This document shows positions 6,765-42,081 of a stretch of 64,000 bases of DNA, one piece after another; within the stretch, counting starts at the first letter, position 1, and the number at the start of each line of letters is the position of its first letter. The stretch is from contig NZ_BMKX01000004.1 of assembly GCF_014644555.1 (NCBI RefSeq), positions 124,001-188,000 on the forward strand, in the 5' to 3' direction. This DNA is from Glutamicibacter ardleyensis. GTDB lineage: Bacteria; Actinomycetota; Actinomycetes; Actinomycetales; Micrococcaceae. Both the position numbers and the translations under genes were made by a program. A model generated the notes under the pieces. That model was not told the DNA's origin, ran no database searches, and saw nothing but the letters and a program-made list of their open reading frames with translations.

Positions 6765-7061
6765 CTATTCGCCTGACTGGGTTGGCTCTGGCTCGTCCGG
6801 GGTAGCTGCAGGATCATCGGTAAAATTCTCGCGCAGTGTCTGGTTCAGTTCTGCGGAAGATTCGGTGGCTACGGCAAGCGGATCGGTGGCTTGCTGGTCT
6901 TGGGCCATGGCCTCGTCGCTGCGCAGCGGATCGGATGCCTCCAAGGTCTGCGGGGCATCGGAGGAGCCTTCGGAGACCGGTTGGCCGTCGCGGCCATCTA
7001 GTGGTTCATCTTCCAGACCCTCTTGGTTCACGGCTTGGAATTCTGCTTCGTTGAACGACAT
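6765..7061 (-). CDS. Small acidic protein of unknown function
   Basis: A 98-residue protein rich in E, D, P, Q and S, with no hydrophobic segment, probably disordered. A good ribosome-binding site (AGGAG) precedes the ATG at 7061. It lies 41 bases upstream of the TPP-enzyme gene on the same strand, so the two may be co-transcribed. No known domain recognised. Its composition recalls hydrophilic stress proteins, but that is inference. Confidence 0.7.
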   Translation of the reverse strand: MSFNEAEFQAVNQEGLEDEPLDGRDGQPVSEGSSDAPQTLEASDPLRSDEAMAQDQQATDPLAVATESSAELNQTLRENFTDDPAATPDEPEPTQSGE

Positions 7062-7120
7062 TTTTTACTCCTAAGATTGAGGATGGACACCGGATGCAAC
7101 CCGGTTAGCTGGTCAATGTA

Positions 7121-7714
7121 CTAGATGCGCTTGCCGCGTGACATCGCCTTGAGCAAACTCCCAGTGTCTACCGCAGGCTGGCGGTGCAGTACTTCCAACT
7201 GGTGCAGCGTGGTTTGTTCAAAATCCGGGTCTGCGGAGGCTACGGCCTGACTGGCGATGGCTACGCGGTAGTTCGCTGCAAAGGCATCTGCCGCGGTGGC
7301 TGCGATGCAGGAATCTGAAGCCACTCCGGCCAGAATCAGCCCTCGGATCCTGTGGAACTGCAGAAGCCCGTCCAGACCGGTTTGCCAGAAGGCGCTGTCG
7401 CGATGCTTGACGACTTCCACCGCGCGGGATAGGTCCAGTTCAGCAAGGTTGTGAGTCTGCACTGTTCCTTCAAAGAGGAATCCTTGGTCATCTTCGAGCA
7501 TGCTCAACGTCCAGGTCGATTTATCGCGCTGGTGAATGGTGCGGATATTGACTATCAGCAGATCATGAGCGCGGGCTTCGGTCAGCAGCCTGTTGCACTG
7601 CCCGGCCACCTGCTGGCGCAGCTTCGCCAGTTCGGCAGTCTCGAAGAAAGCATTTTGCATATCGACAATGACCAGCGCCGGACTTGAGAAGTATTCTGGT
7701 TTCCACAGGCTCAT
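7121..7714 (-). CDS. Isochorismatase-family cysteine hydrolase
   Basis: A 197-residue enzyme with the full catalytic triad of the family: aspartate in ALVIVDMQNAFF (D18), lysine in VVKHRDSAFW (K103) and cysteine in GVASDSCIAATA (C136). Length and motif spacing match nicotinamidase/N-carbamoyl-hydrolase-like members, which cleave amides or related bonds; the substrate is not predictable. Cytoplasmic. It is preceded by a strong terminator, so it has its own promoter, and it may be co-transcribed with the small acidic gene that follows about 60 bases downstream. Confidence 0.88.
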   Translation of the reverse strand: MSLWKPEYFSSPALVIVDMQNAFFETAELAKLRQQVAGQCNRLLTEARAHDLLIVNIRTIHQRDKSTWTLSMLEDDQGFLFEGTVQTHNLAELDLSRAVEVVKHRDSAFWQTGLDGLLQFHRIRGLILAGVASDSCIAATAADAFAANYRVAIASQAVASADPDFEQTTLHQLEVLHRQPAVDTGSLLKAMSRGKRI

Positions 7715-7741
7715 TGTTTACTACCTTGGCTTCAGATATAG

Positions 7742-7780
7742 CTGACGATGGGGACAGGAAATTCCTGTCCCCATCGTCAG
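7742..7780 (-). terminator. Strong hairpin terminator
   Basis: A 17-base stem beginning CTGACGATGGGGAC closes on a five-base AAATT loop; it is a near-perfect 39-base palindrome. It lies just after the stop of the membrane-protein gene at 7804 and before the isochorismatase gene. Confidence 0.88.
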
Positions 7781-7803
7781 TGGGTTCTCGTTAATGGGTC
7801 TCA

Positions 7804-8055
7804 CTAGAGTCCCGCGTCACTGCCACCGCGCGGGTGGTCAAGACTGCTTGGACCCTTGATCATCCTGAACAGGCCCCAGATGGCCATCAGTGCGCCCCAG
7901 GCGACACCTATCCACATCGGGGAGAACGACCTGTCAGCATTCTGCGGGATCAGCAAGAACGACAAGAAAAAGGCCAAGATGATCAAACCGCCAATCAGCA
8001 GCCCCAATCCCAGGTGTTTCCTGCGGGGAGCTTTTTCAGGCTGTCGCGAAGTCAT
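7804..8055 (-). CDS. Small two-helix membrane protein
   Basis: An 83-residue protein with a short basic N-terminus (residues 1-13) followed by two hydrophobic segments at about 15-36 and 47-65, and a polar C-terminal tail. It should sit in the cytoplasmic membrane. No family recognised. It is the last gene of a short minus-strand run that includes the 51-residue protein at 8077 and the DUF7218 protein at 8256, ended by the hairpin at 7742. Confidence 0.75.
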   Translation of the reverse strand: MTSRQPEKAPRRKHLGLGLLIGGLIILAFFLSFLLIPQNADRSFSPMWIGVAWGALMAIWGLFRMIKGPSSLDHPRGGSDAGL

Positions 8056-8865: not shown

Positions 8866-9945
8866 ATGAGTACCTTCGGTATCGAAGAAGAATTCTTCAT
8901 GATCGATGCGGAAACCGGGCTACCGGCCGAACCGGATCCCAACCCGTTCAAAGAACTGCTCGACTCGCAGCGGCGTGGAGAGGTGCAGCATGAGCTACTG
9001 GCTTGCCAGCTGGAGTACGCCAGTGCCATCTGCGAAGACAGAAATCAGGCGCTGGCGGAACTGCGTGGTTTCCGTTCTGCTTTGGCCCACCAAGCCGAAG
9101 CGTCTTCAATGATTGTCGCCGGGCTCGGTGCGGCACCAATGATCGCGCAGAAAACTCCGACGGTGACCGATAACGAGCGATACCAAGACATCCATGCGCT
9201 GCTTCCGGGAATCACCTCGGAGCATTACATGTGCGGACTGCATATTCATGTGTCCATCCCTGATCGTGACGCGGGGGTAAGGGCATTAAATTTCCTGCGG
9301 CCGTGGTTGCCGTTATTCTGCGCCCTGGGCGCCAACTCGCCCCTGTGGCACGGAGCGGACAGCGGATTTTCTTCCTGGCGCACTATCCACTACCGCAAAT
9401 GGTCCGTTCAGGGGATCCCCCCGCATTTCAGCGACGCATTGGACTACGAGAGTAGGCTGCGTGTGCTGGTCGACACGGAAGCAGTCCCTGATCAAGGACA
9501 TATCGGATGGGCCGTACGGCTTTCAGAAACCCATCCCACCATTGAGCTGCGCGTCGCAGATTCGCAATTGCGTGCTCATGACTCAGTTCTCATTGCCGTA
9601 CTGGCCCGGGCGGTCGTGGATACGGCACTGAAACCCGGGGCAACGTCCTACGAGTATCTTCCTGAAAGACTGGACATTGCCTTCTGGCAGGCTGCCAAGC
9701 ATGGGCTTACCGGAAACCAGATCAACCCCGGTGACGGAAGTACCGTCAGCAGCAAGGACCTGATGAGCCGGTTGTTGCGGCTGATTGAACCGGCGCTGCG
9801 AGAGAGCGGAGATTATGACTTCGCCGTGCACTCCCTGCGCAATATCTTGGAAATGGGAAACGGCGCAGTCCGTCAGCGGGCAGCCTTTGAGCGTGGTTCC
9901 ATCAGCCATCTATTGGCCAATGCCCATAGTGAAATGCGTATGTAG
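8866..9945 (+). CDS. Carboxylate-amine ligase, GCS2/YbdK family (copy 1)
   Basis: A 359-residue member of the glutamate-cysteine ligase family 2. It begins with the typical GIEEEFF motif, has the metal/substrate loop MCGLHIHVSIPD at about 124-135, the GADSGFSSWRTIHYRKW segment, and the TIELRVADSQ strand near 225-235. These ATP-dependent ligases join a carboxylate to an amine; YbdK proteins have weak glutamate-cysteine ligase activity and their true substrate is often unknown. A good ribosome-binding site (GGGAGAGG) precedes the start. A diverged paralogue lies at 33164. Followed by a cysteine-rich small protein and Dps, suggesting a thiol- or metal-stress context. Confidence 0.9.
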   Translation: MSTFGIEEEFFMIDAETGLPAEPDPNPFKELLDSQRRGEVQHELLACQLEYASAICEDRNQALAELRGFRSALAHQAEASSMIVAGLGAAPMIAQKTPTVTDNERYQDIHALLPGITSEHYMCGLHIHVSIPDRDAGVRALNFLRPWLPLFCALGANSPLWHGADSGFSSWRTIHYRKWSVQGIPPHFSDALDYESRLRVLVDTEAVPDQGHIGWAVRLSETHPTIELRVADSQLRAHDSVLIAVLARAVVDTALKPGATSYEYLPERLDIAFWQAAKHGLTGNQINPGDGSTVSSKDLMSRLLRLIEPALRESGDYDFAVHSLRNILEMGNGAVRQRAAFERGSISHLLANAHSEMRM

Positions 9946-25666: not shown

Positions 25667-28120
25667 TTAGGGGTGCTCCCAGGTAACTTCGTCGGGAGAC
25701 TTCTCCGCACGCCAGCCGCGCCACACCGGATGGCGCAGCCGGCCTTCCCGGGTCAACTCGCTGTAGCGCACTTCGGCCACAAATTTCGGGGTGACCCAGT
25801 GGGCATCGCGGCGATGATCGGCAGGAATCTGCTGAACTGCCGGGGTCTTGCGGATCACGGTGTCGAGCCGATGACGTGCCGTTGACAATTGCTTGTCGCT
25901 GAAACCGGTACCGACGCGTCCCACATAGCGCAATTGTCCATTCTCAGGTACTGCCAGCAGCAGCGAGCCGAGACTGCCGGAGCGTGAACCGTTGCCTTCG
26001 CGCCAGCCGATGACCACAACTTCCTGATGCAGTTCATGCTTGAGCTTCAGCCAGCTGCGGCTGCGCTTGCCCATTTCGTACCGGCTCTTGGTTTCCTTGG
26101 CCATCACGCCTTCAAGGCCCAGCTCACGGCTCGTTTCCAGCGCAGCGTCCAGGGAGCCGGGATGCGCCTGCGGGATTTTCACATGATTGTCAACGGACAC
26201 TTGTGCTTGAAGCCGCTGGCGGCGTTCATGATAAGGAAGTCCCGTGAGGTCCTGCATCCGCCCTGACCCCGGATCGGGAAGCGCAATCGCGTCGAAGAGC
26301 AACAGCTGGACCGCAGGTAATTCCTTGGACGCCCGCAGCGACTTGCGGCTCGCGGAAAGCCGCTGCTGCAGCAAGGAGAAATCCGGACGGCCGGCAGAAT
26401 TGAGGGCTACTATCTCGCCGTCGAGAATGGATCCGGCAGGTGCCAAACGGGCCAGCTGCGCCAGCTCGGGGAAATGAGCACTCAGATCTTTTCCATTGCG
26501 GCTGGACAGGAAGACGCTGTCCTCACCCACGGTGGCCAGCGCCCGGTAACCATCCCATTTCATTTCAAAGCTCCAACCTGTGGCTGCGCCCAGCTCATTG
26601 GGTTCCCCGATGCTCGCCAGCATCGGGGCGGGCGAAAAATCCTTGCCCAGGTCTGCTGGCTTACGTCTGGCGGTTTCTTCGGCACGGACCGAACGTGGCG
26701 GCGCTACGCGGGTACCGGGCTCCGGTTGCTCACGCATCAGCTGCAGCAGCCAGTTCTTCTTCTCGCCCATACCCTGCGCGCGCACGAGCGCAAAGCGCCG
26801 GGGGACCCCGACCAGCCCGCCGTCTTCGCGCCCGTGAAGGACCGCGATGACTTCCTTGTCTTCGCACCATTTTTCTATGACGCAGCTGCCAGCATCCCAG
26901 ATGCTCACCTCTCCGGCACCGTATTCTCCCTTGGGAATGCTGCCTTCAAAACTTCCGTAAGACAGGGGGTGGTCCTCGGTCATGACGGCCAATCGCCGGA
27001 TGCCTTCGGCCAGCGGCGGACCCTTGGGAACTGCCCAGGAGACCAGCACACCGTCGTGTTCCAAGCGGAAGTCCCAATGCAGGCGGCGTGCGTGGTGTTC
27101 TTGAATCACAAATGCCTTGGCGGCATCGCCAGGATCCGCTAGCCGGTCTTCAAATTCGGGCACGGGTTCCGGAGTGAGCTGTGCATCGCGCTTGGATCGG
27201 TAGGTCTCCAACCTGTCGGTTGTCCGCGGGGCCAAGGCACCCAGTGGCGCCAGGGGTTCGAGCCCGGAATCCATGCGTTCAAGGACTTGGCGGAAATCAA
27301 GCTGTGCCAGCTTGGGGTCCGCAATTTCCTCCCAGGTACGCGGGGCGGCGACCGTCGGATGCAGCCTTCCACGCAGCGAGTAGGGGCAGATGGTAGTTTT
27401 TGCTGCGTTGTTCTGGCTCCAGTCCACCAGCACCTTGTTCTCGCGCAGCGAGCGTTTCACGCTGGACACCACCAGATCCGGAAGGTCGCGCTGCAAGGAG
27501 AGCGCCAGCTCTTTGGCGACCGCCGAGATCTGCTCGGAGGTGTGCGTTCCATCCAGTGCGGCATACAGGTGGATGCCTTTGGAACCGGAAGTGACCGGAT
27601 AGCATTCCATGTCCATGCCTTCCAGGATCTCCCGGCAGAGCAGCGCCACCTGGGCGCACTGGGCCAATCCCGCCCCGGGTCCGGGGTCCAAGTCCAAGAC
27701 CAGCCGGTCGGGGTTCTGCGGTTGCAGTGAGCTGTCAAATTTCCACTGCGGGACATGCACTTCCAAGGCGGCGACCTGGCCCAGCCACGCTAGTACGGCC
27801 GGTTCGTTGACCAGCGGGTAAACACTCACACCGCTCCTGTGGGTGATGCTGGCCGTGGGGATCCAGCTTGGGGCGGAATCTTCCAGATCCTTGCGGAAGA
27901 ACACAGCACCGGGAGCGGCTTCGGTGCCCACGCCATCAACCCAGCGTTTGCGGGTCGCCGGACGCCACATGGCATGAGGGATCAGTGAGCTCGCCACCCG
28001 GGCATAATAATCGAGCACTTCGCCCTTGGTGGTTCCGGTACTGGGATACATGACCTTATCCAGGCTGCTCACCTTCAAGGCGCGCCCTTGGACCGATACT
28101 GTTTGCCCGTTCTTGCCCAT
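25667..28120 (-). CDS. ligD: Multifunctional ATP-dependent DNA ligase LigD (NHEJ)
   Basis: An 817-residue NHEJ ligase with domains in the actinobacterial order. Residues 10-295 are the primase/polymerase domain with catalytic aspartates in VLDLDPGPG (D143, D145). Residues 335-470 are the 3'-phosphoesterase (EHHARRLHWDFRLEHDG, PKGEYGAGEV). Residues 498-810 are the ligase, with the nucleotidyl lysine in FEMKWDGYRA (K521). Together with Ku it repairs double-strand breaks without a template, which matters in desiccated or non-dividing cells. Encoded divergently from ku, with about 160 bases between. Confidence 0.97.
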   Translation of the reverse strand: MGKNGQTVSVQGRALKVSSLDKVMYPSTGTTKGEVLDYYARVASSLIPHAMWRPATRKRWVDGVGTEAAPGAVFFRKDLEDSAPSWIPTASITHRSGVSVYPLVNEPAVLAWLGQVAALEVHVPQWKFDSSLQPQNPDRLVLDLDPGPGAGLAQCAQVALLCREILEGMDMECYPVTSGSKGIHLYAALDGTHTSEQISAVAKELALSLQRDLPDLVVSSVKRSLRENKVLVDWSQNNAAKTTICPYSLRGRLHPTVAAPRTWEEIADPKLAQLDFRQVLERMDSGLEPLAPLGALAPRTTDRLETYRSKRDAQLTPEPVPEFEDRLADPGDAAKAFVIQEHHARRLHWDFRLEHDGVLVSWAVPKGPPLAEGIRRLAVMTEDHPLSYGSFEGSIPKGEYGAGEVSIWDAGSCVIEKWCEDKEVIAVLHGREDGGLVGVPRRFALVRAQGMGEKKNWLLQLMREQPEPGTRVAPPRSVRAEETARRKPADLGKDFSPAPMLASIGEPNELGAATGWSFEMKWDGYRALATVGEDSVFLSSRNGKDLSAHFPELAQLARLAPAGSILDGEIVALNSAGRPDFSLLQQRLSASRKSLRASKELPAVQLLLFDAIALPDPGSGRMQDLTGLPYHERRQRLQAQVSVDNHVKIPQAHPGSLDAALETSRELGLEGVMAKETKSRYEMGKRSRSWLKLKHELHQEVVVIGWREGNGSRSGSLGSLLLAVPENGQLRYVGRVGTGFSDKQLSTARHRLDTVIRKTPAVQQIPADHRRDAHWVTPKFVAEVRYSELTREGRLRHPVWRGWRAEKSPDEVTWEHP

Positions 28121-28278
28121 CTGCCGCTCCTTTGCCTACCAAGCCCAATGTGCCTTAGCCAGCGGCCATATTCCAGTATTCCTAGGAAGCTTTGTGTTTT
28201 GATCTGGAGTAATCCGCGGAAACTGGCAATACCGCGCAGCCATTGCCATGGCCGCGGGGTATCTGGTTCACTCGACCC

Positions 28279-29301
28279 ATGAGGGCTATCTGGACAGGAT
28301 CCATTGCATTCGGACTCGTAAACGTCCCGGTCAAGGCTTATGGGGCAACGAGCGACCACGATATCGACCTGCATCAGGTCCACGAGAAAGACGGAGGGCG
28401 GATCCGCTATCAACGGCGCTGCGAAATCTGCGGGGAGAAAGTCTCCTACAAGGACATCGACAAGGCCTATGACGATGGCGAGCAAACCGTGGTGCTAACC
28501 GATGAAGAGATGGATGCCCTGCCGGCGGAGAAGAGCAGAGAAATCGAAGTGGTCCAATTTGTTCCGGCCGCACAAATTGATCCGCTGACTCTGGAGCGCA
28601 GCTACTATCTGGAAGCCGATTCGAAATCCCCGAAGGCCTATGAACTGCTGCGGCGCACCTTGGAAGACACGGAGAAAACCGCGATCGTCAGGTTTACGCT
28701 ACGCCAGAAAACACGCTTGGGCGTGCTGCGCGTGCGCGACAAAGTGCTGGTGCTGCAGGCCATGATGTGGGCTGATGAAATCCGGGCCGCCGACTTTGCA
28801 GTGCCGGAAACATCGCCTCGGATCAGTGCCCAAGAACTGAAAATGTCTGCCTCGCTGGTTGAGCAGTTCAGCGCCGACTTCACCCCGGAAGATTTCGAGG
28901 ATGACTATCAGGTGCAGCTGCGCACGCTGATCGAGGCGAAGCTCGCCGAAGGCGAGGCACTGGACACCGATGCCACGTTCGGCCAGCAAGAATCCGGTGA
29001 GGATTCCGGGGGAGAGGTCATCGATCTGATGGAAGCACTCAAACGCAGCATCGACTCGAAGTCTTCGAAAAGCAGCCAGGCGAAACCGGCCAAGGCAAAA
29101 CCGTCCAAGGAAAAAACAGCCAAGGCCAAGCCGGCGAAAAAATCTCCGGCCAAAAAGTCCTCATCCAAGAAGTCCACGTCCAAGAAGTCCACGTCCGCCA
29201 AGACGGGCAGTTCCACGGCAAAGAAAACCGAGAAGGCCCCAACGACTCAAAAGAAGAAGAAGAAGGCCTCCTCGGCAACGGACAAACGCAAAGAAGCCTA
29301 A
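28279..29301 (+). CDS. ku: DNA end-binding protein Ku
   Basis: A 340-residue Ku homodimer subunit. The core starts MRAIWTGSIAFGLVNVPVK, as in nearly all bacterial Ku proteins, and includes RRCEICGEKVSYKDI and RSYYLEADSKSPKAYELL. Residues from about 255 on form a long tail of Lys, Ser and Ala repeats (KSTSKKSTSAK-type), typical of actinobacterial Ku and able to bind DNA. I use ATG 28279 on family grounds; there is no clear ribosome site before it, so translation may be leaderless. Its stop overlaps that of the convergent dehydrogenase by three bases. Confidence 0.95.
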   Translation: MRAIWTGSIAFGLVNVPVKAYGATSDHDIDLHQVHEKDGGRIRYQRRCEICGEKVSYKDIDKAYDDGEQTVVLTDEEMDALPAEKSREIEVVQFVPAAQIDPLTLERSYYLEADSKSPKAYELLRRTLEDTEKTAIVRFTLRQKTRLGVLRVRDKVLVLQAMMWADEIRAADFAVPETSPRISAQELKMSASLVEQFSADFTPEDFEDDYQVQLRTLIEAKLAEGEALDTDATFGQQESGEDSGGEVIDLMEALKRSIDSKSSKSSQAKPAKAKPSKEKTAKAKPAKKSPAKKSSSKKSTSKKSTSAKTGSSTAKKTEKAPTTQKKKKKASSATDKRKEA

Positions 29302-32467: not shown

Positions 32468-32914
32468 TTAGCTTTCTCCCGAAATTTTGGCCTGTTCAGG
32501 CTGAGGGAAAGAATGCGCCTCGTAGTCAAAGACCGGAATAGTGTGGGCCACCGCGCTGTACTTCCAGTACTTCACGCGGAACATCGACATTCCGGCACGC
32601 TCTGCCTGCTCGAACAGGTTGTTGATCGCGTGATCTTGTCGGCACGGTTCGACCACCATCAGGGCTGGCGACGGCTCGGAAATATGCAGAAATCTCAAGT
32701 CATCGGTGCTCGGCTCAGTCATAGCCACGAGCACAGGCCCCTGATGCACTGAAACCAGCCCCATGACATCATCCAGCTTTTCTGACGGCTGCGTCATGAT
32801 CACAGGCATTCCCGGCTTCCAGCCGAATGCCGCGAGATGTTCTCTTCCTTTTCTTGATCCCAGCAACTGTGCGACACGATGCGCGGTCTGGGACCTGACT
32901 AGCCGGCCTGGCAT
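32468..32914 (-). CDS. Unknown protein, WKYSAVAH family (copy 3)
   Basis: A 148-residue paralogue sharing RLVRSQTAHRVAQLLGSRKGR, DDVMGLVSVHQGPVLVAM, FLHISEPSPAL and FRVKYWKYSAVAHTIPVFDYE. ATG-Pro-Gly start at 32914 behind GTGGAGGGTAGTT, nearly the same leader as copy 2. The C-terminal tail is variable. Faces family B copy 2. Function unknown. Confidence 0.78.
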   Translation of the reverse strand: MPGRLVRSQTAHRVAQLLGSRKGREHLAAFGWKPGMPVIMTQPSEKLDDVMGLVSVHQGPVLVAMTEPSTDDLRFLHISEPSPALMVVEPCRQDHAINNLFEQAERAGMSMFRVKYWKYSAVAHTIPVFDYEAHSFPQPEQAKISGES

Positions 32915-33163
32915 GTGAACTACCCTCCACTTCTAGACGATACTTCCAAAAATACTTGAGCAGTGCTGCGCACGCTCCGGTTCACCGAGGCAGGACATGT
33001 GCCTGCAAAGGGAATCAACAGGAGCATGGCAAGAAATTATCACTTGCGACGCAAAATTTCTGACTCAGTTCCCGAATTCTCAGGTAATTTTCAGGTTGTA
33101 TCGCAACTAGTCAGCAGTGCGTTCAGTCCCAGAATAGTTTCGAGCTCGAATGATCCTGGGTAT

Positions 33164-34255
33164 TCACTGGCCGAAGTGCTCGCGAGCCAAATCCAGCACC
33201 GCTTTGTCGCCGCCTGATAACCACGCCGAACGCTGGCGCTGGGTCCCGGTGCCGTTTTCCTGCCACTTGGCCACCGCGGCCTGCACCCGGCTTTCATCCC
33301 CATTGGCCCGCAGGGCGCCGGAGGCATAGTCCAGCAGCGTTCCTACGTGATCCATGGCTGGGACATTTTCACCCGTACTAGCCTCAAGCAGCTTGCCCCG
33401 CAGCCCAGATCTGGCTGCCTGCCAGAGGGCAAGCTGGAGCGCCTCGGAAGAAGCTGTCGGCGGCACCGGCGGGTGATCGAGCACAGTATCCACCACCGCG
33501 CGGACTAGAACCGCCAGCGCCACAGCTTCACCGCTGGTCATCTGCACATCGCTGGCCCGGATTTCAATCGTGGGGAACTTCTCCGAGAGCCGTGCGCTCC
33601 AGCCGATATGCCCCGCGTCCAGCAGCGATTCCGAGCCAAGCAGCAGTTGTTGATGGCTTCGATAACTCGCGGCATCAGGAAAATGAGGCGGAATCCCATT
33701 GATGGACCAGCGCCGATACTGGATGGTGCGCCACGAGGCGAAGCCGGTATCCTGCCCGCGCCAGAACGGGGAATTGCTGCTCATCGCGATCAGTGCCGGC
33801 AGCCAGGGCCGAAGCCCATTGAGCGCGTGCACCCCGGATTGGAGATCCGGGATGCCGATATGGATATGCATTCCGCTGAGGTAGTGCTCGGCGGCCAGTC
33901 CCGGAACCAGTTGCTGGACCAAATCGTAGCGCCGGGCGTCCGTGATCCGTGCCGGCTGGGCAGGCAAGGCCGGTGGCGTACCCAGCGCCGCGGGAAAGAC
34001 CCCGATCTGCTGGCACCGTGCCTGCAGCAGCTGCCTGGTGGCACGCAATTGCTCCACAGCCAGCTCGGCATCCTGGAAGACTGCCGTCGCGATCTCGATT
34101 TGCGCCGCCAGGAACTCGGTCTGCACATTGCCCGGATGCACCTGCGCATTAAGTTCGAGCAGCTGTGTGGATTCTTCCGGGTTCAGTGGGGCCAAGCTGT
34201 AGGTGTGCGCGTCGAAGAGGAAAAATTCCTCCTCGATGCCAAAAGTTCTGGACAC
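33164..34255 (-). CDS. Carboxylate-amine ligase, GCS2/YbdK family (copy 2)
   Basis: A 363-residue GCS2-type ligase with FGIEEEFFLFD at the start, LSGMHIHIGIPDLQSG in the middle, the GQDTGFASWRTIQYRRW segment, and PTIEIRASDVQ. It aligns along its length with the copy at 8866 but is clearly diverged, so it probably has another substrate. It is the last gene of a minus-strand run (37589 to 33164) with an FAD oxidoreductase, a haem-oxygenase-like iron protein and a CDGSH protein, suggesting that it forms an amide in a small-molecule pathway with those redox enzymes. Confidence 0.9.
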   Translation of the reverse strand: MSRTFGIEEEFFLFDAHTYSLAPLNPEESTQLLELNAQVHPGNVQTEFLAAQIEIATAVFQDAELAVEQLRATRQLLQARCQQIGVFPAALGTPPALPAQPARITDARRYDLVQQLVPGLAAEHYLSGMHIHIGIPDLQSGVHALNGLRPWLPALIAMSSNSPFWRGQDTGFASWRTIQYRRWSINGIPPHFPDAASYRSHQQLLLGSESLLDAGHIGWSARLSEKFPTIEIRASDVQMTSGEAVALAVLVRAVVDTVLDHPPVPPTASSEALQLALWQAARSGLRGKLLEASTGENVPAMDHVGTLLDYASGALRANGDESRVQAAVAKWQENGTGTQRQRSAWLSGGDKAVLDLAREHFGQ

Positions 34256-34315
34256 TATGCGCCTTCGTTCCGGGGGACGGGCAATTGAGGTGCCGGCGTC
34301 GCTGCAGCGCGCAAC

Positions 34316-34522
34316 TTAGCTGTTCTTCTCGAAGCCATTGAGCTTGTGCGAACCATCGCAGTACGGCTTGATCGCCGAGGCTCCGCACCGGCACAGGGCA
34401 ACGGTGCCGCGGGTGCGCGGGACCGGTTGGCCCGCGGCATCAAGAATCTCAAAATCTCCGCGCACCAGCAACGGTCCGCGCGGGCAGACCACAATGCTTG
34501 CCTCCGGCTCGGACGCGCTCAT
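34316..34522 (-). CDS. CDGSH iron-sulfur domain protein
   Basis: A 68-residue protein with the three-cysteine/one-histidine [2Fe-2S] motif in CRCGASAIKPYCDGSH (C44, C46, C55, H59). CDGSH proteins are small electron-transfer or cluster-transfer proteins. Start ATG 34522 overlaps by four bases the stop of the upstream iron-oxidase gene and has GGGGAG eight bases upstream, so the two are translationally coupled and probably partners. No membrane anchor, as usual for bacterial forms. Confidence 0.92.
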   Translation of the reverse strand: MSASEPEASIVVCPRGPLLVRGDFEILDAAGQPVPRTRGTVALCRCGASAIKPYCDGSHKLNGFEKNS

Positions 34523-35541
34523 CTGGACAGCTCCCCGGCGCGCAGCGAGCTGCGCCCTTGGTCCCAAGCATCCATTTGCCAGCGGCCGAGCAGCTCGTCC
34601 ATGAAGCACACCGCGCGGGCTCCGAAGAACACGGCTGGGCCAAGCTGCGGATCGGCTTCAATCAGCCCGCCGGCCAGATCGCGGCCGGCGATCTGTTCAT
34701 GGACCGCGTCGGCCTCCACATGCTCGTCGAAATATTCGGTCACCTCGGTGCCGAACCCCAGACGGCGCAGCCCCCGCGCATAGCGCGAACTGGGAATCGA
34801 TGAAGTCATTTCGTAAATGGCCAGGTGTCCTGCAATGGCGCCGCGCAGCCGGCGGTGCAAACCGAAGAGCGACATCATGTTAACCGAAGCCAAGGTGATC
34901 GCCGGAATGGCGTTGATGTATGCGCCGAAGCCGGTGTCAAGGCCGAGCCCCGCCATGGTCTGGGCGAAGAGTTCGCTATGCATTTTGCCCGGCCGCCCAC
35001 TGCCGTACTCGTCGAATTGGATCTCCACCAGAGCGGACTTGCCCCGGCCAGTGAGCCGGGGGATGGCCCAGGTATGCGGGTCCGCTTCTTTCAACTGGTA
35101 AATGGACTTCTGGATGAGGAACTGCTGCACCTGCTCGATGCTGGCGTGACGCGAGACGAAGTCGGCGACTGAGGGTCCTTCCGAGGAATTTGCCAGCTCG
35201 AAGAGCTCCATCGCGATTTCCTCGGCCGTGCCGGGAACTTTCGGGATACTGCCGACGGCTTCGCGCAGCCGGGATTCAAAGGCGGCTTCCAGCCGGGCAC
35301 GGAACGCGAGTAATCCCGGATGCCACTCCCACCGGTCGCTGACCTCATCGAAGCCTGCATAGTGCAATTCGTACAGGGCAAAAAGACACAGCTGCAGGTC
35401 TTCGTCATAGAGGATATCGGTATCTGGCAATGCCAGCGTGGCTGCCTCATTGAGTCCCTGCAAATCAGGTGAGAGATCGTCCTGTCCGAGGATTTCGAAC
35501 AGCAGGGCGCTAGCCGGTCCGCGGTGCGCTGGAAGTTTCAT
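34519..35541 (-). CDS. Haem-oxygenase-like iron-containing redox enzyme
   Basis: A 340-residue protein of the iron-containing redox enzyme (Haem_oxygenas_2) family, an all-helical fold. Conserved acidic and histidine residues occur in FALYELHYAGFD, ALVEIQFDEYG with KMHSELF, and EYFDEHVEADAVHEQ, consistent with a non-haem di-iron site. Characterised relatives oxidise, decarboxylate or N-oxygenate small molecules; this substrate is unknown. ATG 35541 (after GAGGA) is preferred to the GTG five codons earlier. Coupled to the CDGSH gene, which could supply electrons. Confidence 0.85.
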   Translation of the reverse strand: MKLPAHRGPASALLFEILGQDDLSPDLQGLNEAATLALPDTDILYDEDLQLCLFALYELHYAGFDEVSDRWEWHPGLLAFRARLEAAFESRLREAVGSIPKVPGTAEEIAMELFELANSSEGPSVADFVSRHASIEQVQQFLIQKSIYQLKEADPHTWAIPRLTGRGKSALVEIQFDEYGSGRPGKMHSELFAQTMAGLGLDTGFGAYINAIPAITLASVNMMSLFGLHRRLRGAIAGHLAIYEMTSSIPSSRYARGLRRLGFGTEVTEYFDEHVEADAVHEQIAGRDLAGGLIEADPQLGPAVFFGARAVCFMDELLGRWQMDAWDQGRSSLRAGELSR

Positions 35542-35637
35542 GGGTCCATTCCTCACGTGCTACAGGGATTGTTGGAACACAGCCTAGAACAATGTGCCAT
35601 CACCGTTTGATTCCTCCCACCGGCTCCCGGAATTCTC

Positions 35638-37062
35638 TCAGCTTCGCCTCAGGTCTTTGAGTGCCTGGTGCGCCGCATGCCAGCCGGCCATGCCATGCAC
35701 CCCGCCTCCGGGCGGGGTGGAGGAAGAACACAGATACAGCCCCGGCACACCCAAGCGATAAGGCGATAGCGACGCGGTAGGACGCACGAACTGCTGCAGG
35801 CCGCTCAGCGATCCACCGCCGATATCCCCGCCCACCAGATTCGGGTTCCATGCTTCAAGCTGTGCCGGACTGGTTTCTGCCCGGCGCAGGATCCGGTCCT
35901 TGAATCCCGGTGCGAAGCGTTGAATCTGCGCGTCGATCAGTTCTCCCGCCTTGCCGGTATACCCTTGCGGCACGTGCGCGTAAGACCAGATCACCTGCTG
36001 CCCGGCGGGGGCTCGGGTTTCATCGGCAGAGGAGGGCTGAACCACCATCACGAAGGGGCGCTGCGGCATGCGTCCGGCCGCTACTTCGCGTTCAGCATCC
36101 GCTAGTTCGCCAGCTTCACCGACCACGTGAACCGTCCCCGCATTGGCCGTGCGCGGGTCATTCCACGGCACCGGGCCATCGAGCAGGTAGTCAACCTTGT
36201 ACACCGCCGTGCCATAGCGCCAGCGTTCGAGCTGCTTGCGGTAGTGCGCGGGCAATCGGGATCCGGCAATATCCAGTAATTGGCGCGGGGTGACGTCCAA
36301 GAGAGTCAGCTCTGCCGGTGGCAGCTGGGCAATATCGGTGATGTGCGTGCCGGTACGGATGCGCACGTCCAGTGCCTGGAGGACCTTGAGCAGGGCTTCG
36401 ATAATGCTGCCGGTCCCGCCGCGGGCCACCGGCCAGCCCCACGACTGGCCCAATGCGCCGAAAAGCGCTCCGAAGCCGGAGGTAAAGGGATGCTCGAGTG
36501 GCAGCATGGAGTGCGCACTGGAGCCGGCAAACAGCGCCTTGGCCTCGCGTGTACGAAATGCTGCGGCACCAAGCAGCCTGGCTGGTGGCAGCGAGCGCAA
36601 TCCGAAGCGCGCCATGAGCACCGGGTGCGGTGGAATGCCCAGCAGCGGACTGGTCGCATTATCCAGGGTGTCGTGCGGGCGGGCGATCAGCGGTGCATGA
36701 AGTGCCTGCCACGCGCGCGAGTCCTTTGGGAATTGCTTGACGGTCTCGGACAGGTCCTGATGCAGAAGCACCGAATCGGCGCCATCAAGCGGGTGGGCCA
36801 GCGGGTAGTCGTGGAATTTCCATTCCAGACCCTGCCCGGTCAGGTTGAAGTGCCTGAAGGCAGGGGATCCGAAGGCGAAAGGGTGGGCGGCGGCACCCAG
36901 ATCCACCACGATGCCATCACCTAAGGTATTGCCTGAGGCGGCAGCACCGCCGGGTTTGGCGTTGCGCTCAAAGACTTGCACCTCAAAGCCTTGTTCGGCA
37001 AGCACCGCCGCGGCGATCAGTCCGTTGGGTCCCGCGCCGACGACATTAGCCCTGCGCGTCAT
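35638..37062 (-). CDS. FAD-dependent oxidoreductase (phytoene-desaturase/PYROXD2-like)
   Basis: A 474-residue flavoprotein: the dinucleotide-binding motif is VVGAGPNGLIAAAVLAEQG (about 7-25), the second FAD contact is FERNAKPGGAAAS, and the C-terminal FAD site is GLYLCSSSTPPGGGVHGMAG. It belongs to the phytoene desaturase-like superfamily; carotenoid chemistry is not indicated, as no carotenoid genes are nearby. Its start overlaps by four bases the stop of the unknown gene at 37059 and it lies about 100 bases upstream of the iron-oxidase gene, so the run is likely one operon. Confidence 0.88.
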   Translation of the reverse strand: MTRRANVVGAGPNGLIAAAVLAEQGFEVQVFERNAKPGGAAASGNTLGDGIVVDLGAAAHPFAFGSPAFRHFNLTGQGLEWKFHDYPLAHPLDGADSVLLHQDLSETVKQFPKDSRAWQALHAPLIARPHDTLDNATSPLLGIPPHPVLMARFGLRSLPPARLLGAAAFRTREAKALFAGSSAHSMLPLEHPFTSGFGALFGALGQSWGWPVARGGTGSIIEALLKVLQALDVRIRTGTHITDIAQLPPAELTLLDVTPRQLLDIAGSRLPAHYRKQLERWRYGTAVYKVDYLLDGPVPWNDPRTANAGTVHVVGEAGELADAEREVAAGRMPQRPFVMVVQPSSADETRAPAGQQVIWSYAHVPQGYTGKAGELIDAQIQRFAPGFKDRILRRAETSPAQLEAWNPNLVGGDIGGGSLSGLQQFVRPTASLSPYRLGVPGLYLCSSSTPPGGGVHGMAGWHAAHQALKDLRRS

Positions 37063-37589
37063 TTGCCTCCTCCAGCGCTGCCCTCCGTGGGTTCGGGGGC
37101 GAAGCGGTCCTCCCAGGTTTCATCGCTGAGCAAAACCAATTGGCTGATCTGGGACACTGCACGTTGCTCCAAGTCTTCCAGCAGCGCCCGGTCCAGCCGG
37201 GGTTCTTCGCCAACCATCAATTGCAGCGTCTGCCACATGCGCAACTTGGCATTAAGCAGCCCGGTGAGCACGTCCAGCTGAACCTGCGCTGCCGAGATCT
37301 TGCGCTGCCTGAAGGGGTTGAACGGGTTGACCATTCCGGCAAGTTTCGCCACCGGAGCGGCGACTTGCGCCAGGGGTCCGCGGCTGAAACCTAAGCGGTC
37401 CATGAGCGATTCAAGATCCTGCTGGTCTTTTTCGACTTGCTTCCACAAGGAGTTGAAGCGCTCCTCATGCGCGGTTCCGGCCCAGGTATCTTTCGCGGCT
37501 TCAAAATGATTGAGCCCGGATTCGGAGCCCAGCAGATGCTGGCTTAGGTACCTGTGCAGTTTTTCCTGGTCGATTAGGTGGTGCGCCAT
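37059..37589 (-). CDS. Unknown helical protein, first gene of the redox operon
   Basis: A 176-residue mostly helical protein (LHRYLSQHLLGSESGLNHFE, DLESLMDRLGF, AKLRMWQTLQLM). The H-x(n)-E-rich first third and length are compatible with a small ferritin-like or helical-bundle fold, but I recognise no family. ATG 37589 follows AAGGA. Translation is coupled to the FAD oxidoreductase. A promoter with TTGGAA-17-TAGCGT lies about 50 bases upstream. Confidence 0.7.
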   Translation of the reverse strand: MAHHLIDQEKLHRYLSQHLLGSESGLNHFEAAKDTWAGTAHEERFNSLWKQVEKDQQDLESLMDRLGFSRGPLAQVAAPVAKLAGMVNPFNPFRQRKISAAQVQLDVLTGLLNAKLRMWQTLQLMVGEEPRLDRALLEDLEQRAVSQISQLVLLSDETWEDRFAPEPTEGSAGGGK

Positions 37590-37640
37590 CACGGTGTTCC
37601 TTCGCTCAGTGGGGCAGCTTGCGGCTGGCTGGTAGGTCGT

Positions 37641-37669
37641 ACGCTATGTTGCTTGCCGGATTATTCCAA
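37641..37669 (-). promoter_or_regulatory. Probable promoter of the redox/ligase operon
   Basis: TTGGAA and TAGCGT separated by 17 bases on the minus strand, 52 bases upstream of the first gene. Same -10 hexamer as dps and the SDR gene. Confidence 0.5.
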
Positions 37670-37728
37670 GGCCTCGCCTCGATTGCCCGGTAATTCCCAT
37701 AATTCTGGGAGCCTGGTCGTGCCGGTGG

Positions 37729-38343
37729 CTAGGAACTGGGGAACGGCTGGGATTTGAGCAACGCGGCGAGGTGCGCACTATTGCGCGTTGAAATATCGGT
37801 GGCGTTGGCGGTGACCTCGGGAGTCTGCTCGAGATCCTGGAAATCGGTGGTGTGCATCGCCTCGCCAACCCAATAGGTGGAGCCCTGCGCAGCGATGCTG
37901 AAGCCGACGTCGCTTAGTCCTTGGGACAAGTCCGCAATCACGTGGTGAGCCCCATCCTCGTTGCCCACCACCGCCACCATTGCGACCTTGTCGAACAGTA
38001 TCGGGCGTCCCTGGCTGTCCGTTTCGGAGAGTTCTGCATCGAGGCGTTCCAGCACCCGCTGGGAGACACTCGAAGGGTGGCCAACCCAGATCGGGGTGGC
38101 CAGCACCAGAATGTCCGCCGCCAAGATCTTTTCCCGGATTCCGGGCCATTCATCTCCCTCGCCCATGTCTTTGAGTACGCCGGGCATGACGTTATAGTCC
38201 ACAACCCGCAGAATCTCGGATTGGACGCCGTGTTCCGAGAACTTCTGCCCTACCTGCTGTGCCAGCAGATCGCTGCTGGATTTTTTAGGAGAAGGTGACA
38301 GGGTGCAGACGAGGATCAATGCGTTAAGGCTGTTCGAATTCAT
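37729..38343 (-). CDS. Flavodoxin-like NAD(P)H-dependent FMN reductase family protein
   Basis: A 204-residue flavodoxin-fold protein: ALILVCTLSPSPKKSSSDLLAQ forms the first strand and the FMN phosphate loop, LVLATPIWVGHPSSVSQRVLERLDA is the second FMN-contact region, and VAMVAVVGNEDGAHHVIADL the third. Members reduce quinones, azo compounds or iron chelates with FMN. ATG 38343 is used (AGGA 11 bases upstream); a TTG three codons earlier is in frame. Single gene. Confidence 0.85.
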   Translation of the reverse strand: MNSNSLNALILVCTLSPSPKKSSSDLLAQQVGQKFSEHGVQSEILRVVDYNVMPGVLKDMGEGDEWPGIREKILAADILVLATPIWVGHPSSVSQRVLERLDAELSETDSQGRPILFDKVAMVAVVGNEDGAHHVIADLSQGLSDVGFSIAAQGSTYWVGEAMHTTDFQDLEQTPEVTANATDISTRNSAHLAALLKSQPFPSS

Positions 38344-38396
38344 GAGAATCAATTCCTAAGGTCGGTAGATTCTTGAGTGAAGGTTAGCCGCTGCGT

Positions 38397-39059
38397 TCAT
38401 CGGCCATCGGTCGGGGCAGCTCGATGATCGATTGCCGCGGTGATCCGGTCGATTTCTTCCCGGGCGTCAGTGAACTGCTCAACCTTTTGCCACAGTTGCG
38501 GATGCGCCCGGTGCACCTCGGCGAGGCTGGTGCCGTCGGTTGCCAGTTTGGACAGGTCGAAGCTGACGTTGGTGCGCGCGCCGGTGACTGCGGCGCGCAG
38601 AGCCCCCAGCCCCACCGCCACGTCGGCGATCAGTGATGGATTGCCGTGTTCGGCAAGCCATGCCAGATCCGCGATGGCCGTGATAGCCAATTCACCTAGC
38701 GCGGCCGAAGCCTCAGCGGCCTGAACCGAGGCGGCTTCAACGGCCTGCTGCCTGCTGGGACCGGGCTCCATGCCAAACGCTGCCCCGAATGTGTTGGTAG
38801 CTGCCGCATCCTGGTCACCGAGTTCCAAGGCCTTGCTTTTGAGCTGTTGCGCCCGGGAATCGATCGAAGACAGCGCGTCTTGCTGGTTCTGATCGTCCGC
38901 GGTGGTGTATCCGCACACCATGGAGGTCAGCGAGGCCGCGATGGCCAGCATGATTCCGGAGGCCGCCCCGCCACCCGGAGCCCCGTCGGATATCGCCAGC
39001 GCATTGATCCAGCTGGCAATGGTGGAGTTCGCTGTCGAGGCGGTTTCGGTATTATCCAT
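38397..39059 (-). CDS. Cyclodeaminase/cyclohydrolase-family protein (FTCD_C domain)
   Basis: A 220-residue protein of the formiminotetrahydrofolate cyclodeaminase-like family: the N-terminal APGGGAASGIMLAIAASLTSMV is typical, followed by long helices (AQQLKSKALELGDQDAAATNTF, AALGELAITAIADLAWLAEHGN, and DVAVGLGALRAAVTGA). Family members handle folate one-carbon units, but stand-alone actinobacterial copies such as this have no proven role. Cytoplasmic. The small acidic gene at 39080 lies 20 bases upstream on the same strand. Confidence 0.83.
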   Translation of the reverse strand: MDNTETASTANSTIASWINALAISDGAPGGGAASGIMLAIAASLTSMVCGYTTADDQNQQDALSSIDSRAQQLKSKALELGDQDAAATNTFGAAFGMEPGPSRQQAVEAASVQAAEASAALGELAITAIADLAWLAEHGNPSLIADVAVGLGALRAAVTGARTNVSFDLSKLATDGTSLAEVHRAHPQLWQKVEQFTDAREEIDRITAAIDHRAAPTDGR

Positions 39060-40948: not shown

Positions 40949-41536
40949 ATGAAGATCATTGATTCAGCGCAAGCTCTTGGCCAGGCTATTCGCGGCGCGC
41001 GTATCGCGCTCGGACTAACTCAGCAAGCTCTGGCCGAATCTAACGGACTGTCGCGGAAGTTCATCGGAGAGCTCGAATCGGGTAAGGGTTCGATTGAGCT
41101 TGGTTCGGCGCTCAAGGTCGCGAAATCGTTGGGAATAATCTGGGGAGCTCCCGATCCAACCCCGCAGATGGTTTTAGACAAAGCTGCCCGCGACATTGCC
41201 GAGGAGCTGTCCGCCGGTGATCGAGAATTCGCCTTGAGACTGGCTATGGACGCACTCAAATACCTGAAAACGATGAAGCCAGAGCGTCTGAAGAAACCTC
41301 GGCCCACTGGCAGCGAGCAATTCGACGCTCTGCTCGCTGCAGGTGCACGGCTCGTGATAGAAGGAAGCTCACCACATATGCCGCGCTGGGGCAAAAAGCT
41401 ATCCGCTGCCTGGTTCCCTGGCAGTGACACCCGGAACATGGGGGAGGCGTTCCGTCGCCTGACCATAAAACGTACGCCCAAGATGTTTGCTGATTTCAAC
41501 ATTTACATTAAAGACAATTCCTTGGAAATCACATGA
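40949..41536 (+). CDS. XRE-type helix-turn-helix protein, probable antitoxin/regulator
   Basis: A 195-residue protein. Residues 8-62 form an HTH_3 domain (LGQAIRGARIALGLTQQALA, then SRKFIGELESGKGSIELGSAL). The C-terminal part, from about 70 on, is a separate domain with RLTIKRTPKMFADFNIYIKDN and no family I recognise. Coupled by a four-base overlap to a nucleotidyltransferase gene, as expected for a two-gene toxin-antitoxin or defence module. Probably represses its own promoter at the CCGATCGG palindrome. The region is less GC-rich than its surroundings, suggesting acquisition. Confidence 0.82.
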   Translation: MKIIDSAQALGQAIRGARIALGLTQQALAESNGLSRKFIGELESGKGSIELGSALKVAKSLGIIWGAPDPTPQMVLDKAARDIAEELSAGDREFALRLAMDALKYLKTMKPERLKKPRPTGSEQFDALLAAGARLVIEGSSPHMPRWGKKLSAAWFPGSDTRNMGEAFRRLTIKRTPKMFADFNIYIKDNSLEIT

Positions 41537-42081
41537 GCCGGGAGCTGACATTAGACGAGATTAAAAGCCTCTTGAGGGAGCTCAGTTCCAGGCTCGAGAG
41601 CGCTGGACACAATGCAACCTTTCGACTTGTCGGGGGAGCCGCCATGGCTCTGTCTGGTAGGGATCGGCGCGTAACGCAGGATATCGATGCATCCTATTCA
41701 TCGGCTGCTGATGTGGAACGGGTTGTCCACCAGATTGCTGGTGAGCGAGACTTGGACCGAGACTGGTTGAACTCTTCCGCCCAAGCATTCATCCCGGTCG
41801 GAGCCAGCTGGGTTAAGGTCAGCCTCGGTGAAGGACACAATGCATATATTGCCTCTCCGGAAACCCTGCTGGCGATGAAGCTCAATTCGGCGCGAGAGCG
41901 CGACATAGAGGACCTCAGCTTCTTAGTTGCCAAGATGGGCATTGAGGATCCTGTTGAGGCTGCAAAGATCGCCGATGATCTGTATGGTGACGACGATATT
42001 GCCTATTCACCGCTCAGCCGTGAAGACGCCCAGATCGTGGCTTCAGAAGCTATAGGGCGGGCGCGACAAAAACGACTCTAG
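41533..42081 (+). CDS. Nucleotidyltransferase-fold protein (DUF6036/AbiEii-like), probable toxin
   Basis: A 182-residue protein with the nucleotidyltransferase signature: VGGAAMALSGRDRRVTQDIDA (about 36-56) holds the GG and D-x-D residues, followed by SPETLLAMKLNSARERDIEDL, typical of AbiEii/DUF6036-type proteins. AbiEii toxins inactivate tRNAs or other targets by nucleotide transfer; here toxicity is inferred. It overlaps the HTH gene by ATGA. The pair probably forms a toxin-antitoxin or abortive-infection system. Confidence 0.8.
   Translation: MSRELTLDEIKSLLRELSSRLESAGHNATFRLVGGAAMALSGRDRRVTQDIDASYSSAADVERVVHQIAGERDLDRDWLNSSAQAFIPVGASWVKVSLGEGHNAYIASPETLLAMKLNSARERDIEDLSFLVAKMGIEDPVEAAKIADDLYGDDDIAYSPLSREDAQIVASEAIGRARQKRL

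What the first reader, a model, noticed from the sequence alone, without database searches (positions are those of the whole stretch)
33164..37589. Five-gene run: unknown protein, FAD oxidoreductase, haem-oxygenase-like iron oxidase, CDGSH, GCS2 ligase
The genes are on one strand with two ATGA overlaps and short gaps, and a promoter lies upstream. An amide-forming ligase with a di-iron-type oxidase, an [2Fe-2S] electron carrier and a flavoprotein looks like a small biosynthetic route to a modified amino-acid conjugate, or a redox-defence pathway. I know of no characterised pathway with this set.
Basis: partly seen in the sequence, partly recalled or inferred. Interest (0 to 1): 0.7.

Follow-up and report, generated by a model that had tools for sequence, protein, structure and literature searches.

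The report
Iron oxidase with paired iron-sulfur partner
The five genes are really there, but they are separate units that happen to lie together; the interesting one is an iron enzyme that, in many actinobacteria, keeps the gene of a tiny iron-sulfur protein beside it and may draw its electrons from it during stress.

Summary
The five genes, their strand, coordinates and two ATGA overlaps are confirmed; the promoter is not. They are not one conserved pathway: all five lie together in 5 of 41 family-level loci examined (window included), in differing orders. HP+FAD is its own pair: in 10 of 16 genomes compared, HP lies far from the oxidase. The conserved core is oxidase + CDGSH. [quoted passage not shown] it keeps the seven residues expected for the SznF-type (3H/4C) site, each in at least 170 of 172 loci. 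A type-4 CDGSH [2Fe-2S] gene lies within 3 kb in 32 of 50 HDO-bearing genomes (296 searched), in changing orientation; 12 of the 50 lack it altogether. A SznF homologue in Azospirillum overlaps a small Rieske [2Fe-2S] gene likewise. GCS2 ligases, a GT2 or a HemK2-like methyltransferase recur beside the HDO in parts of the tree. The window also holds a catalase, Ku and LigD. Best reading: a stress-associated, N-oxygenase-type HDO with a dedicated [2Fe-2S] partner; substrate unknown. My searches of open-access papers found no report of an HDO-CDGSH pair.

The parts
34519..35541 (-). [quoted passage not shown] putative ligands E152, E178, H188, E244, H274, D278, H281
   Evidence: PF14518 4.1e-59; AF2 pLDDT 91.5; Foldseek best match HrmI, TM 0.78-0.83; ligands kept in 170-172 of 172 loci
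34316..34522 (-). Single-CDGSH [2Fe-2S] protein, 68 aa, type-4 CISD; candidate electron-transfer partner of the HDO
   Evidence: PF09360 9e-20; best solved match 3tbm 4.5e-17; 3Cys-1His kept in 152-153 of 153, K or R after the His in 147 of 153
34519..34522 (-). ATGA overlap of HDO stop and CDGSH start
33164..34255 (-). GCS2 / YbdK-family carboxylate-amine ligase, 363 aa, GTG start
   Evidence: PF04107 2.9e-42; TIGR02050 232.6 bits, cut-off 176.4; nearest solved YbdK 1r8g 1e-38
35638..37062 (-). FAD-dependent CrtI/CrtO-like oxidoreductase; belongs to the separate HP-FAD pair
   Evidence: HP next to FAD in 15 of the 20 best HP loci, 10 of these 15 away from the HDO
37059..37589 (-). Unknown protein (HP), 176 aa, predicted helical bundle; partner of FAD
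   Evidence: AF2 pLDDT 81.8; Foldseek best E 9.4e-3, ferritin-like chains; no family above cut-off
37059..37062 (-). ATGA overlap of HP stop and FAD start
35542..35637 (-). 96-bp gap that separates the HP-FAD pair from the HDO-CDGSH-GCS2 run

Best explanation
The run is two modules side by side. Module 1 (HP-FAD) is inherited independently and is not explained here. Module 2 is an N-oxygenase-type diiron HDO with the SznF-like 3H/4C ligand set, made together with a dedicated small [2Fe-2S] CDGSH protein that passes single electrons to the diferric site so that it can turn over with O2. In this lineage a YbdK-type ligase is added, which would join the gamma-carboxylate of glutamate to the amine substrate before oxidation or to the product after it. 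The module sits in stress-protection islands and probably makes, under drying or oxidative stress, a small N-oxygenated, possibly gamma-glutamylated metabolite. Shown: the genes, the linkage, the ligand conservation, the stress setting. Inferred: electron transfer, N-oxygenation, the ligase step, the physiological role. My odds: HDO and CDGSH work together 0.75; CDGSH is the electron donor 0.5; the reaction is N-oxygenation 0.4; GCS2 acts in the same pathway 0.4.
For: The HDO's nearest solved relatives are HrmI, RohS and SznF by profile (E 6.5e-14 to 3.5e-11) and by fold. The extra Fe1 Glu of SznF (E189; RohS E93, per PMC11611611 passage) aligns to E152; the seven expected ligands are kept in 170-172 of 172 loci. 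CDGSH lies within 3 kb in 32 of 50 HDO genomes (33 loci: 12 same-strand downstream, 6 same-strand upstream, 14 convergent, 1 divergent). CDGSH is present in 38 of 50 HDO genomes against 56 of 246 others (Fisher 1.5e-12), GCS2 in 38 of 50 against 96 of 246 (1.8e-6) (not corrected for phylogeny). Independent parallel: a SznF homologue (6e-117) in Azospirillum overlaps a 111-aa Rieske gene. Precedent: MboA needs the flavin/Fe2S2 partner MboB (PMC13185094 passages). GCS2 genes beside the HDO fall into several separate, supported clades. Stress setting.
Against: 18 of 50 HDO genomes have no CDGSH within 3 kb, and 12 of these none anywhere at E<=1e-8, so CDGSH is not indispensable; four of the 18 unlinked cases keep a GT2 beside the HDO (L181, L183, L187, L189). 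A review states that HDOs studied so far need no protein effector (PMC13108848 passage), although MboAB is a counter-example for electron supply. Of five HDO relatives looked at outside actinobacteria, four show no annotated [2Fe-2S] neighbour; one of these four is a HrmI relative. GCS2 is near the HDO only in a minority of loci, and on the tree the label 'adjacent' is no more clustered than shuffled labels. None of the chemistry is tested.
Confidence: 0.42

Rival explanations
1. The HDO is a protective O2/peroxide-handling oxidase rather than a biosynthetic enzyme: with electrons from CDGSH it disposes of H2O2, organic peroxide or O2 in dried or stressed cells, perhaps as DtpC does beside KatE.
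For: DtpC, an HDO-like protein co-transcribed with katE, limits H2O2 in dried cells and needs residues aligned to HDO ligands (PMC13232832, abstract and passages). The window holds a long catalase, Ku and LigD. Relatives lie near CsbD and STAS genes, SigB-type sigma factors and DUF3618/holin/DUF4235 genes. Mn-catalase-like genes, named by eye, are in 4 of 41 family-level and 6 of 80 named loci (cl20).
Against: Conserved non-ligand residues (R230 in 172 of 172, R233 and N221 in 167 each) and recurrent ligase, glycosyltransferase or methyltransferase neighbours suggest a specific organic substrate. Homology of P0003 to DtpC was not tested (its sequence was not at hand).
Confidence: 0.25
2. CDGSH is an iron or cluster donor/repair factor (or redox sensor) for the labile diiron site, not an electron donor in turnover.
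For: Many HDO diiron sites are labile (PMC13108848 section 4); that CISD proteins can transfer clusters is recalled.
Against: The parallel partners of other HDOs are a Rieske protein and a flavin/Fe2S2 reductase, which are electron carriers.
Confidence: 0.18
3. Island hitch-hiking: HDO, CDGSH and GCS2 are separate members of general-stress islands, and their proximity reflects the island, not a shared reaction.
For: Neighbourhoods hold stress genes; GCS2 copies number 1-8 per genome in 244 of 245 family members, and another GCS2 lies elsewhere in this window. The uniform-placement expectation does not allow for islands.
Against: HDO-CDGSH adjacency survives changes of orientation. In the 40 phylum-level loci CDGSH is within 4 kb in 25, against 3 for sigma factors, 1 each for cl20, holin and STAS and none for CsbD, DUF3618, DUF4235 or GAF-ANTAR (single short queries, so these markers are undercounted).
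Confidence: 0.1
4. One reading: one five-gene biosynthetic operon with the flavoprotein and the unknown protein as pathway members.
For: All five co-locate in 5 of 41 family-level loci including the window; same strand and short gaps here.
Against: HP-FAD is a pair of its own: FAD is adjacent in 15 of the 20 best HP loci, and in 10 of the 16 of those genomes that also have the HDO, HP lies 60 kb or more away or on another contig. In L052, L055 and L057 HP-FAD is on the opposite strand.
Confidence: 0.05

Closest known systems
SznF (streptozotocin N-oxygenase; HDO + cupin)
   Same: Aligned 3H/4C ligand set; HDO fold TM 0.68-0.73; a SznF homologue also carries an overlapping [2Fe-2S] gene
   Different: No cupin domain; about 20% identity; substrate unknown; partner is CDGSH, not Rieske
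HrmI (L-lysine N-oxygenase, hormaomycin)
   Same: Best profile and fold match (E 6.5e-14, TM 0.78-0.83)
   Different: HrmI is 3H/3C per PMC13108848, ours has the seventh carboxylate; about 20% identity
MboA-MboB (mangotoxin acetylenase and redox partner)
   Same: HDO with a dedicated iron-sulfur partner and amino-acid ligases in one cluster (PMC13185094 passages)
   Different: MboB is a flavin + Fe2S2 reductase using NAD(P)H; CDGSH is a 68-aa protein with only that domain; MboA desaturates a peptide and is 3H/3C
DtpC (Acinetobacter desiccation-tolerance HDO)
   Same: HDO-like protein in a stress setting beside a catalase gene
   Different: Co-transcribed with katE there; the paper's main text does not mention CDGSH; homology beyond the superfamily not tested
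YbdK/GCS2 carboxylate-amine ligases
   Same: TIGR02050 above cut-off; YbdK 1r8g nearest solved
   Different: Substrates of this clade unknown; not EgtA (26.3 bits, cut-off 370.8)

Membership tests
Heme-oxygenase-like diiron oxidases (HDO) | PF14518 domain and HDO helical fold | tested here: met
   199.8 bits, cut-off 28.9; Foldseek to HrmI/SznF/RohS
Heme-oxygenase-like diiron oxidases (HDO) | Core ligands: Glu and His on alpha1, Glu on alpha2, HX3(D/E)X2H on alpha3 | tested here: met
   E178, H188, E244, H274-D278-H281; 171-172 of 172 each. Alpha2/alpha3 motif from PMC11611611 passage. In one search E178, H188, H274, D278 and H281 align to Glu, His, His, Asp, His of SznF; E244 falls one column beside the SznF Glu because of a gap. 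SznF numbers other than E189 are recalled or counted from the alignment
3H/4C (SznF-like) HDO subgroup | Extra Glu ligand from auxiliary helix alpha2 (SznF E189, RohS E93) | tested here: met
   E152 aligned to SznF E189; Glu in 170 of 172, gap in 2
N-oxygenase (functional class) | Oxygenation of an amine nitrogen | not testable with these tools
   No assay; homology only
SznF proper | C-terminal cupin domain | tested here: not met
   Only PF14518 found in P0003; the Azospirillum homologue has Cupin_2
BesC lysine desaturase-lyase | NF042919 above 500 bits | tested here: not met
   14.3 bits
Type-4 CISD (CDGSH) proteins | One CDGSH motif with 3Cys-1His and Lys/Arg after the His | tested here: met
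   C44, C46, C55 in 153 of 153, H59 in 152 of 153, K or R60 in 147 of 153; type definition from PMC3174974 passages
MboB-like HDO redox partner | Flavin and Fe2S2 reductase using NAD(P)H | tested here: not met
   68 aa, only a CDGSH domain; so 'works like', not a member
Dedicated HDO redox partner (function) | Electron transfer needed for HDO turnover | not testable with these tools
   Linkage only
YbdK-family carboxylate-amine ligase | TIGR02050 above 176.4 bits | tested here: met
   232.6 bits
EgtA | TIGR03444 above 370.8 bits | tested here: not met
   26.3 bits
CrtO/CrtI carotenoid enzymes (FAD gene) | NF045689 above 1000 bits or TIGR02734 above 238.1 bits | tested here: not met
   96.3 and 53.3 bits
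DtpC | Sequence homology to DtpC beyond the superfamily | not tested
   DtpC sequence not at hand; only the paper's passages were seen

The most novel reading that the evidence does not exclude
Actinobacteria have a widespread stress-linked enzyme system in which a SznF-type diiron N-oxygenase is powered by its own CDGSH [2Fe-2S] protein, a new kind of HDO redox partner (and, as far as I know and did not search exhaustively, a first catalytic electron-transfer role for a bacterial type-4 CISD), to make an unknown N-oxygenated, lineage-decorated (gamma-glutamyl, glycosyl or methyl) protective metabolite.
Probability: 0.25. Interest if true: 0.78.

Novelty: new variant of a known kind. Interest (0 to 1): 0.55.

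Why it matters
HDOs are a superfamily of more than 10,000 members of which about a dozen are characterised (PMC13108848 section 4), and MboAB is described by its authors as possibly the first characterised dedicated HDO-redox partner pair (PMC13185094 passage). A second, structurally different partner, found by linkage across many actinobacteria, would show how an N-oxygenase-type HDO gets its electrons, would give bacterial type-4 CDGSH proteins a concrete job, and would hint at a common but unknown stress metabolite of soil actinobacteria. It can be tested with two soluble proteins.

Tried and rejected
One five-gene operon: rejected as a conserved unit. Promoter upstream: not supported by the scan. 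BesC-like or EgtA-like assignments: rejected on scores. Ferritin-like diiron function for HP: the AF2 model is a helical bundle, Foldseek hits are weak (best E 9.4e-3), and the invariant columns hold no Glu, so no claim. Dimethylargininase as part of the system: within 4 kb in 1 of 173 loci. Phage families: none for HP or HDO at E 0.01. CDGSH as a universal partner: rejected (12 of 50 HDO genomes lack it). A whole-genome or complex-structure test was not available.

Limits of the counts. The 40 family-level loci come from 39 of the 101 matching genomes, chosen by hand for score and spread. The 40 phylum-level loci come from 39 of the 50 HDO genomes. L071-L150 are the best 80 of 554 and partly repeat genomes of L031-L070; 161 of 172 HDO stretches are distinct. 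The 16 genomes of the HP comparison are those among the 20 best HP matches that also have the HDO; weaker HP homologues were not compared. One search takes GCS2 numbers and assumes uniform placement. Fisher tests are not corrected for phylogeny. The label count sets 24 adjacent rows against 5 loosely linked ones only and leaves out 21 rows. ORFs were called by a crude script, and cluster names such as Mn-catalase are by eye. GT2 and HemK2-like names rest on one representative each and on PLSDB annotation. Five of the 19 hits H14-H32 were inspected as outgroups; the PLSDB gene table is incomplete. Paper search listed 15 of 232 papers, one search listed 6 of 37; I did not open the others, and 'haem' spellings were not searched.
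Full report
OBSERVATION. The five genes are present as described. HP 37059-37589, FAD 35638-37062, HDO 34519-35541, CDGSH 34316-34522 and GCS2 33164-34255 are all on the minus strand. ATGA overlaps join HP to FAD and HDO to CDGSH; the FAD-HDO gap is 96 bp and the CDGSH-GCS2 gap 60 bp. Pfam and NCBIfam support the four named families; HP matches nothing above cut-off. The promoter claim is not supported: the only promoter-like site in 32900-38500 is on the other strand and no more than shuffles give. The window lies in a 3.94-Mb genome, contig C4; the HDOs nearest by identity in named genomes are from Arthrobacter sp. MYb213 (79%) and Glutamicibacter protophormiae (67%).

TWO MODULES. The HDO was found in 101 of 245 genomes of the family. 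I fetched 40 loci from 39 of these genomes. tblastn of the window's proteins shows CDGSH in 39 of 40 (not L037), GCS2 in 19 of 40 anywhere in the fetched stretch (up to about 7.5 kb away), and HP or FAD in 5 of 40. All five genes occur together in 4 of the 40 (L051, L052, L055, L057; two genera); only L051 keeps order and strand. A search with the HP family found it in 114 of 245 genomes. In the 20 best HP loci FAD is adjacent in 15. Sixteen of these 20 genomes also have the HDO: HP is within 3 kb of it in 6 (in one of them without FAD) and 60 kb or more away, or on another contig, in 10. HP-FAD is therefore its own pair, and the five-gene run is a local juxtaposition.

THE CORE PAIR. In 296 genomes drawn across the phylum, the HDO profile matches 50 genomes and the CDGSH profile 94. 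In 32 of the 50 HDO genomes (33 loci) a CDGSH gene lies within 3 kb: 12 downstream on the same strand, 6 upstream on the same strand, 14 convergent, 1 divergent. Adjacency that outlasts inversion is hard to explain by operon inheritance alone. CDGSH occurs in 38 of 50 HDO genomes against 56 of 246 others (not corrected for phylogeny). Against this, 18 of the 50 have no linked CDGSH, and 12 of these have no CDGSH at E<=1e-8 at all. With a 4-kb limit, CDGSH is beside the HDO in 40 of 41 family-level (window included), 78 of 80 named, 25 of 40 phylum-level and 11 of 12 plasmid loci (the first two sets overlap).

WHAT THE HDO IS. The profile's nearest solved relatives are HrmI (6.5e-14), RohS (7.9e-13, 9.1e-12) and SznF (3.2e-11 to 3.5e-11); BesC is at 0.061. 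The AlphaFold2 model (pLDDT 91.5, pTM 0.90) matches HrmI (TM 0.78-0.83), SznF (0.68-0.73), RohS (0.64-0.68), FlcD, CADD and more weakly BesC. The phmmer alignment places E152 on SznF position 189, which PMC11611611 (passages) names as an Fe1 ligand from auxiliary helix 2. E178, H188, H274, D278 and H281 align to Glu, His, His, Asp and His of SznF; E244 falls one column beside the SznF Glu because of a gap. SznF numbers other than E189 are recalled or counted. Each of the seven is kept in 170-172 of 172 loci (E152 has two gaps, H274 is Met in L257, where the annotated gene is short). So the enzyme has the 3H/4C set that PMC13108848 (section 4) assigns to about a quarter of HDOs. R230, kept in 172 of 172, is a candidate substrate residue. 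Whether it N-oxygenates anything is not tested.

WHAT THE CDGSH PROTEIN IS. A 68-aa single-motif CISD; the best solved match is 3tbm (that this is the type-4 Ralstonia protein is recalled and fits its length). It keeps 3Cys-1His in 152-153 of 153 and K or R after the His in 147 of 153, the latter a type-4 mark (PMC3174974, passages). The aligned HDOs are strongly acidic (mean net charge -20 in 22), the CDGSH proteins about neutral (+0.5 in 21), which is compatible with docking but weak.

PARALLELS. In Azospirillum a full-length SznF homologue (6e-117 to SznF) overlaps by 4 bases a 111-aa Rieske [2Fe-2S] gene. In the mangotoxin cluster the HDO MboA needs MboB, a flavin/Fe2S2 reductase, described as possibly the first characterised dedicated HDO-redox partner pair (PMC13185094, passages). 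Four other plasmid HDOs looked at (Sphingobium, Komagataeibacter, Novosphingobium, Nostoc) have no annotated [2Fe-2S] gene within 4 kb, so 1 of 5 outgroup loci does; the small gene after the Sphingobium HDO matches a response-regulator domain only below its cut-off. Three unlike iron-sulfur proteins beside three HDOs suggest, but do not prove, convergent recruitment of one-electron partners.

THE LIGASE AND OTHER NEIGHBOURS. GCS2 lies within 4 kb of the HDO in 17 of 41 family-level, 9 of 80 named, 5 of 40 phylum-level and 1 of 12 plasmid loci. For the phylum set 0.10 loci are expected within 2.5 kb under uniform placement and 5 are seen. GCS2 is present in 38 of 50 HDO genomes against 96 of 246 others. 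In a 50-row tree the GCS2 genes next to the HDO fall into separate supported clades: four phylum-level rows (100/100), three Cellulomonas rows (100/99), a Leifsonia row with a loosely linked one (100/99), and the window's clade of 25 rows, 13 adjacent and 12 not (96/87). So ligases of several clades have come to lie beside the HDO; the label itself is no more clustered than shuffles (500 of 500 as low). Other neighbours differ by lineage: a GT2 glycosyltransferase (9 of 41, 24 of 80, 10 of 40, 1 of 12), directly downstream of the HDO in 31 of the 33 members of one cluster, and a HemK2/MTQ2-like methyltransferase (0 of 41, 0 of 80, 10 of 40, 9 of 12). A Kitasatospora plasmid carries YbdK ligase, dimethylargininase, HDO, CDGSH and HemK2-like genes in a row beside CsbD, STAS and SpoIIE genes.

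STRESS SETTING. The window holds a long catalase, Ku and LigD. HDO loci elsewhere lie near CsbD, STAS and SpoIIE genes, SigB-type sigma factors and GAF-ANTAR genes and DUF3618/holin/DUF4235 genes; Mn-catalase-like genes, named by eye, are within 4 kb in 4 of 41 and 6 of 80 loci. PMC13232832 (abstract and passages) shows that another HDO-like protein, DtpC, limits peroxide in dried cells and is co-transcribed with katE. [quoted passage not shown]

MECHANISM. Most likely the CDGSH protein gives electrons to the diferric HDO, which activates O2 at a 3H/4C site and oxygenates an amine nitrogen; in this lineage a YbdK ligase adds or prepares a gamma-glutamyl group. Linkage, ligands and setting are shown; electron flow, substrate, product and role are inferred. 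Rivals are a peroxide-handling oxidase (DtpC-like), a metal or cluster donor role of CDGSH, and island hitch-hiking.

LITERATURE. In the held open-access library no paper combines CDGSH with 'heme-oxygenase-like' or with 'iron-containing redox enzyme'. The titles and abstract openings listed by broader searches show none on such a pair, but one search listed only 15 of 232, and most subscription journals are not held. This is not proof of absence.

VERDICT. Not a five-gene pathway; a new variant of a known kind (HDO with a dedicated iron-sulfur partner), common in Actinomycetota and directly testable.

Noticed in passing
window 8866-9945 (+): A second GCS2/YbdK-family ligase in the same window; the genome has 4 GCS2 matches in all.
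   Followed up: partly
window 957-3143 (+), 25667-28120 (-), 28243-29301 (+): Long KatE-type catalase, LigD and Ku: the window looks like a stress-protection island.
   Followed up: partly
L259 (Azospirillum argentinense plasmid p5) 3539-5286: Full-length SznF homologue overlapping a 111-aa Rieske [2Fe-2S] gene and followed by an amino acid permease: a candidate N-oxygenase cluster with its own redox partner.
   Followed up: partly
L249 (Kitasatospora sp. NBC_00039 plasmid) 3884-7942: YbdK ligase, dimethylargininase, HDO, CDGSH and HemK2/MTQ2 methyltransferase in a row; the arginine-type hydrolase hints at an arginine-derived substrate.
   Followed up: partly
L260 (Sphingobium yanoikuyae plasmid pKN1) 3770-5004: HrmI-like HDO overlapping a small gene with a sub-threshold response-regulator match, between two Crp/Fnr regulators.
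   Followed up: no
window 35638-37589 (-): HP-FAD: a pair of unknown helical-bundle protein and CrtI/CrtO-like flavoprotein in Micrococcaceae, function unknown.
   Followed up: partly
window 40949-42081 (+): HTH_3 protein overlapping a DUF6036 nucleotidyltransferase-like gene, a possible toxin-antitoxin-like pair.
   Followed up: no
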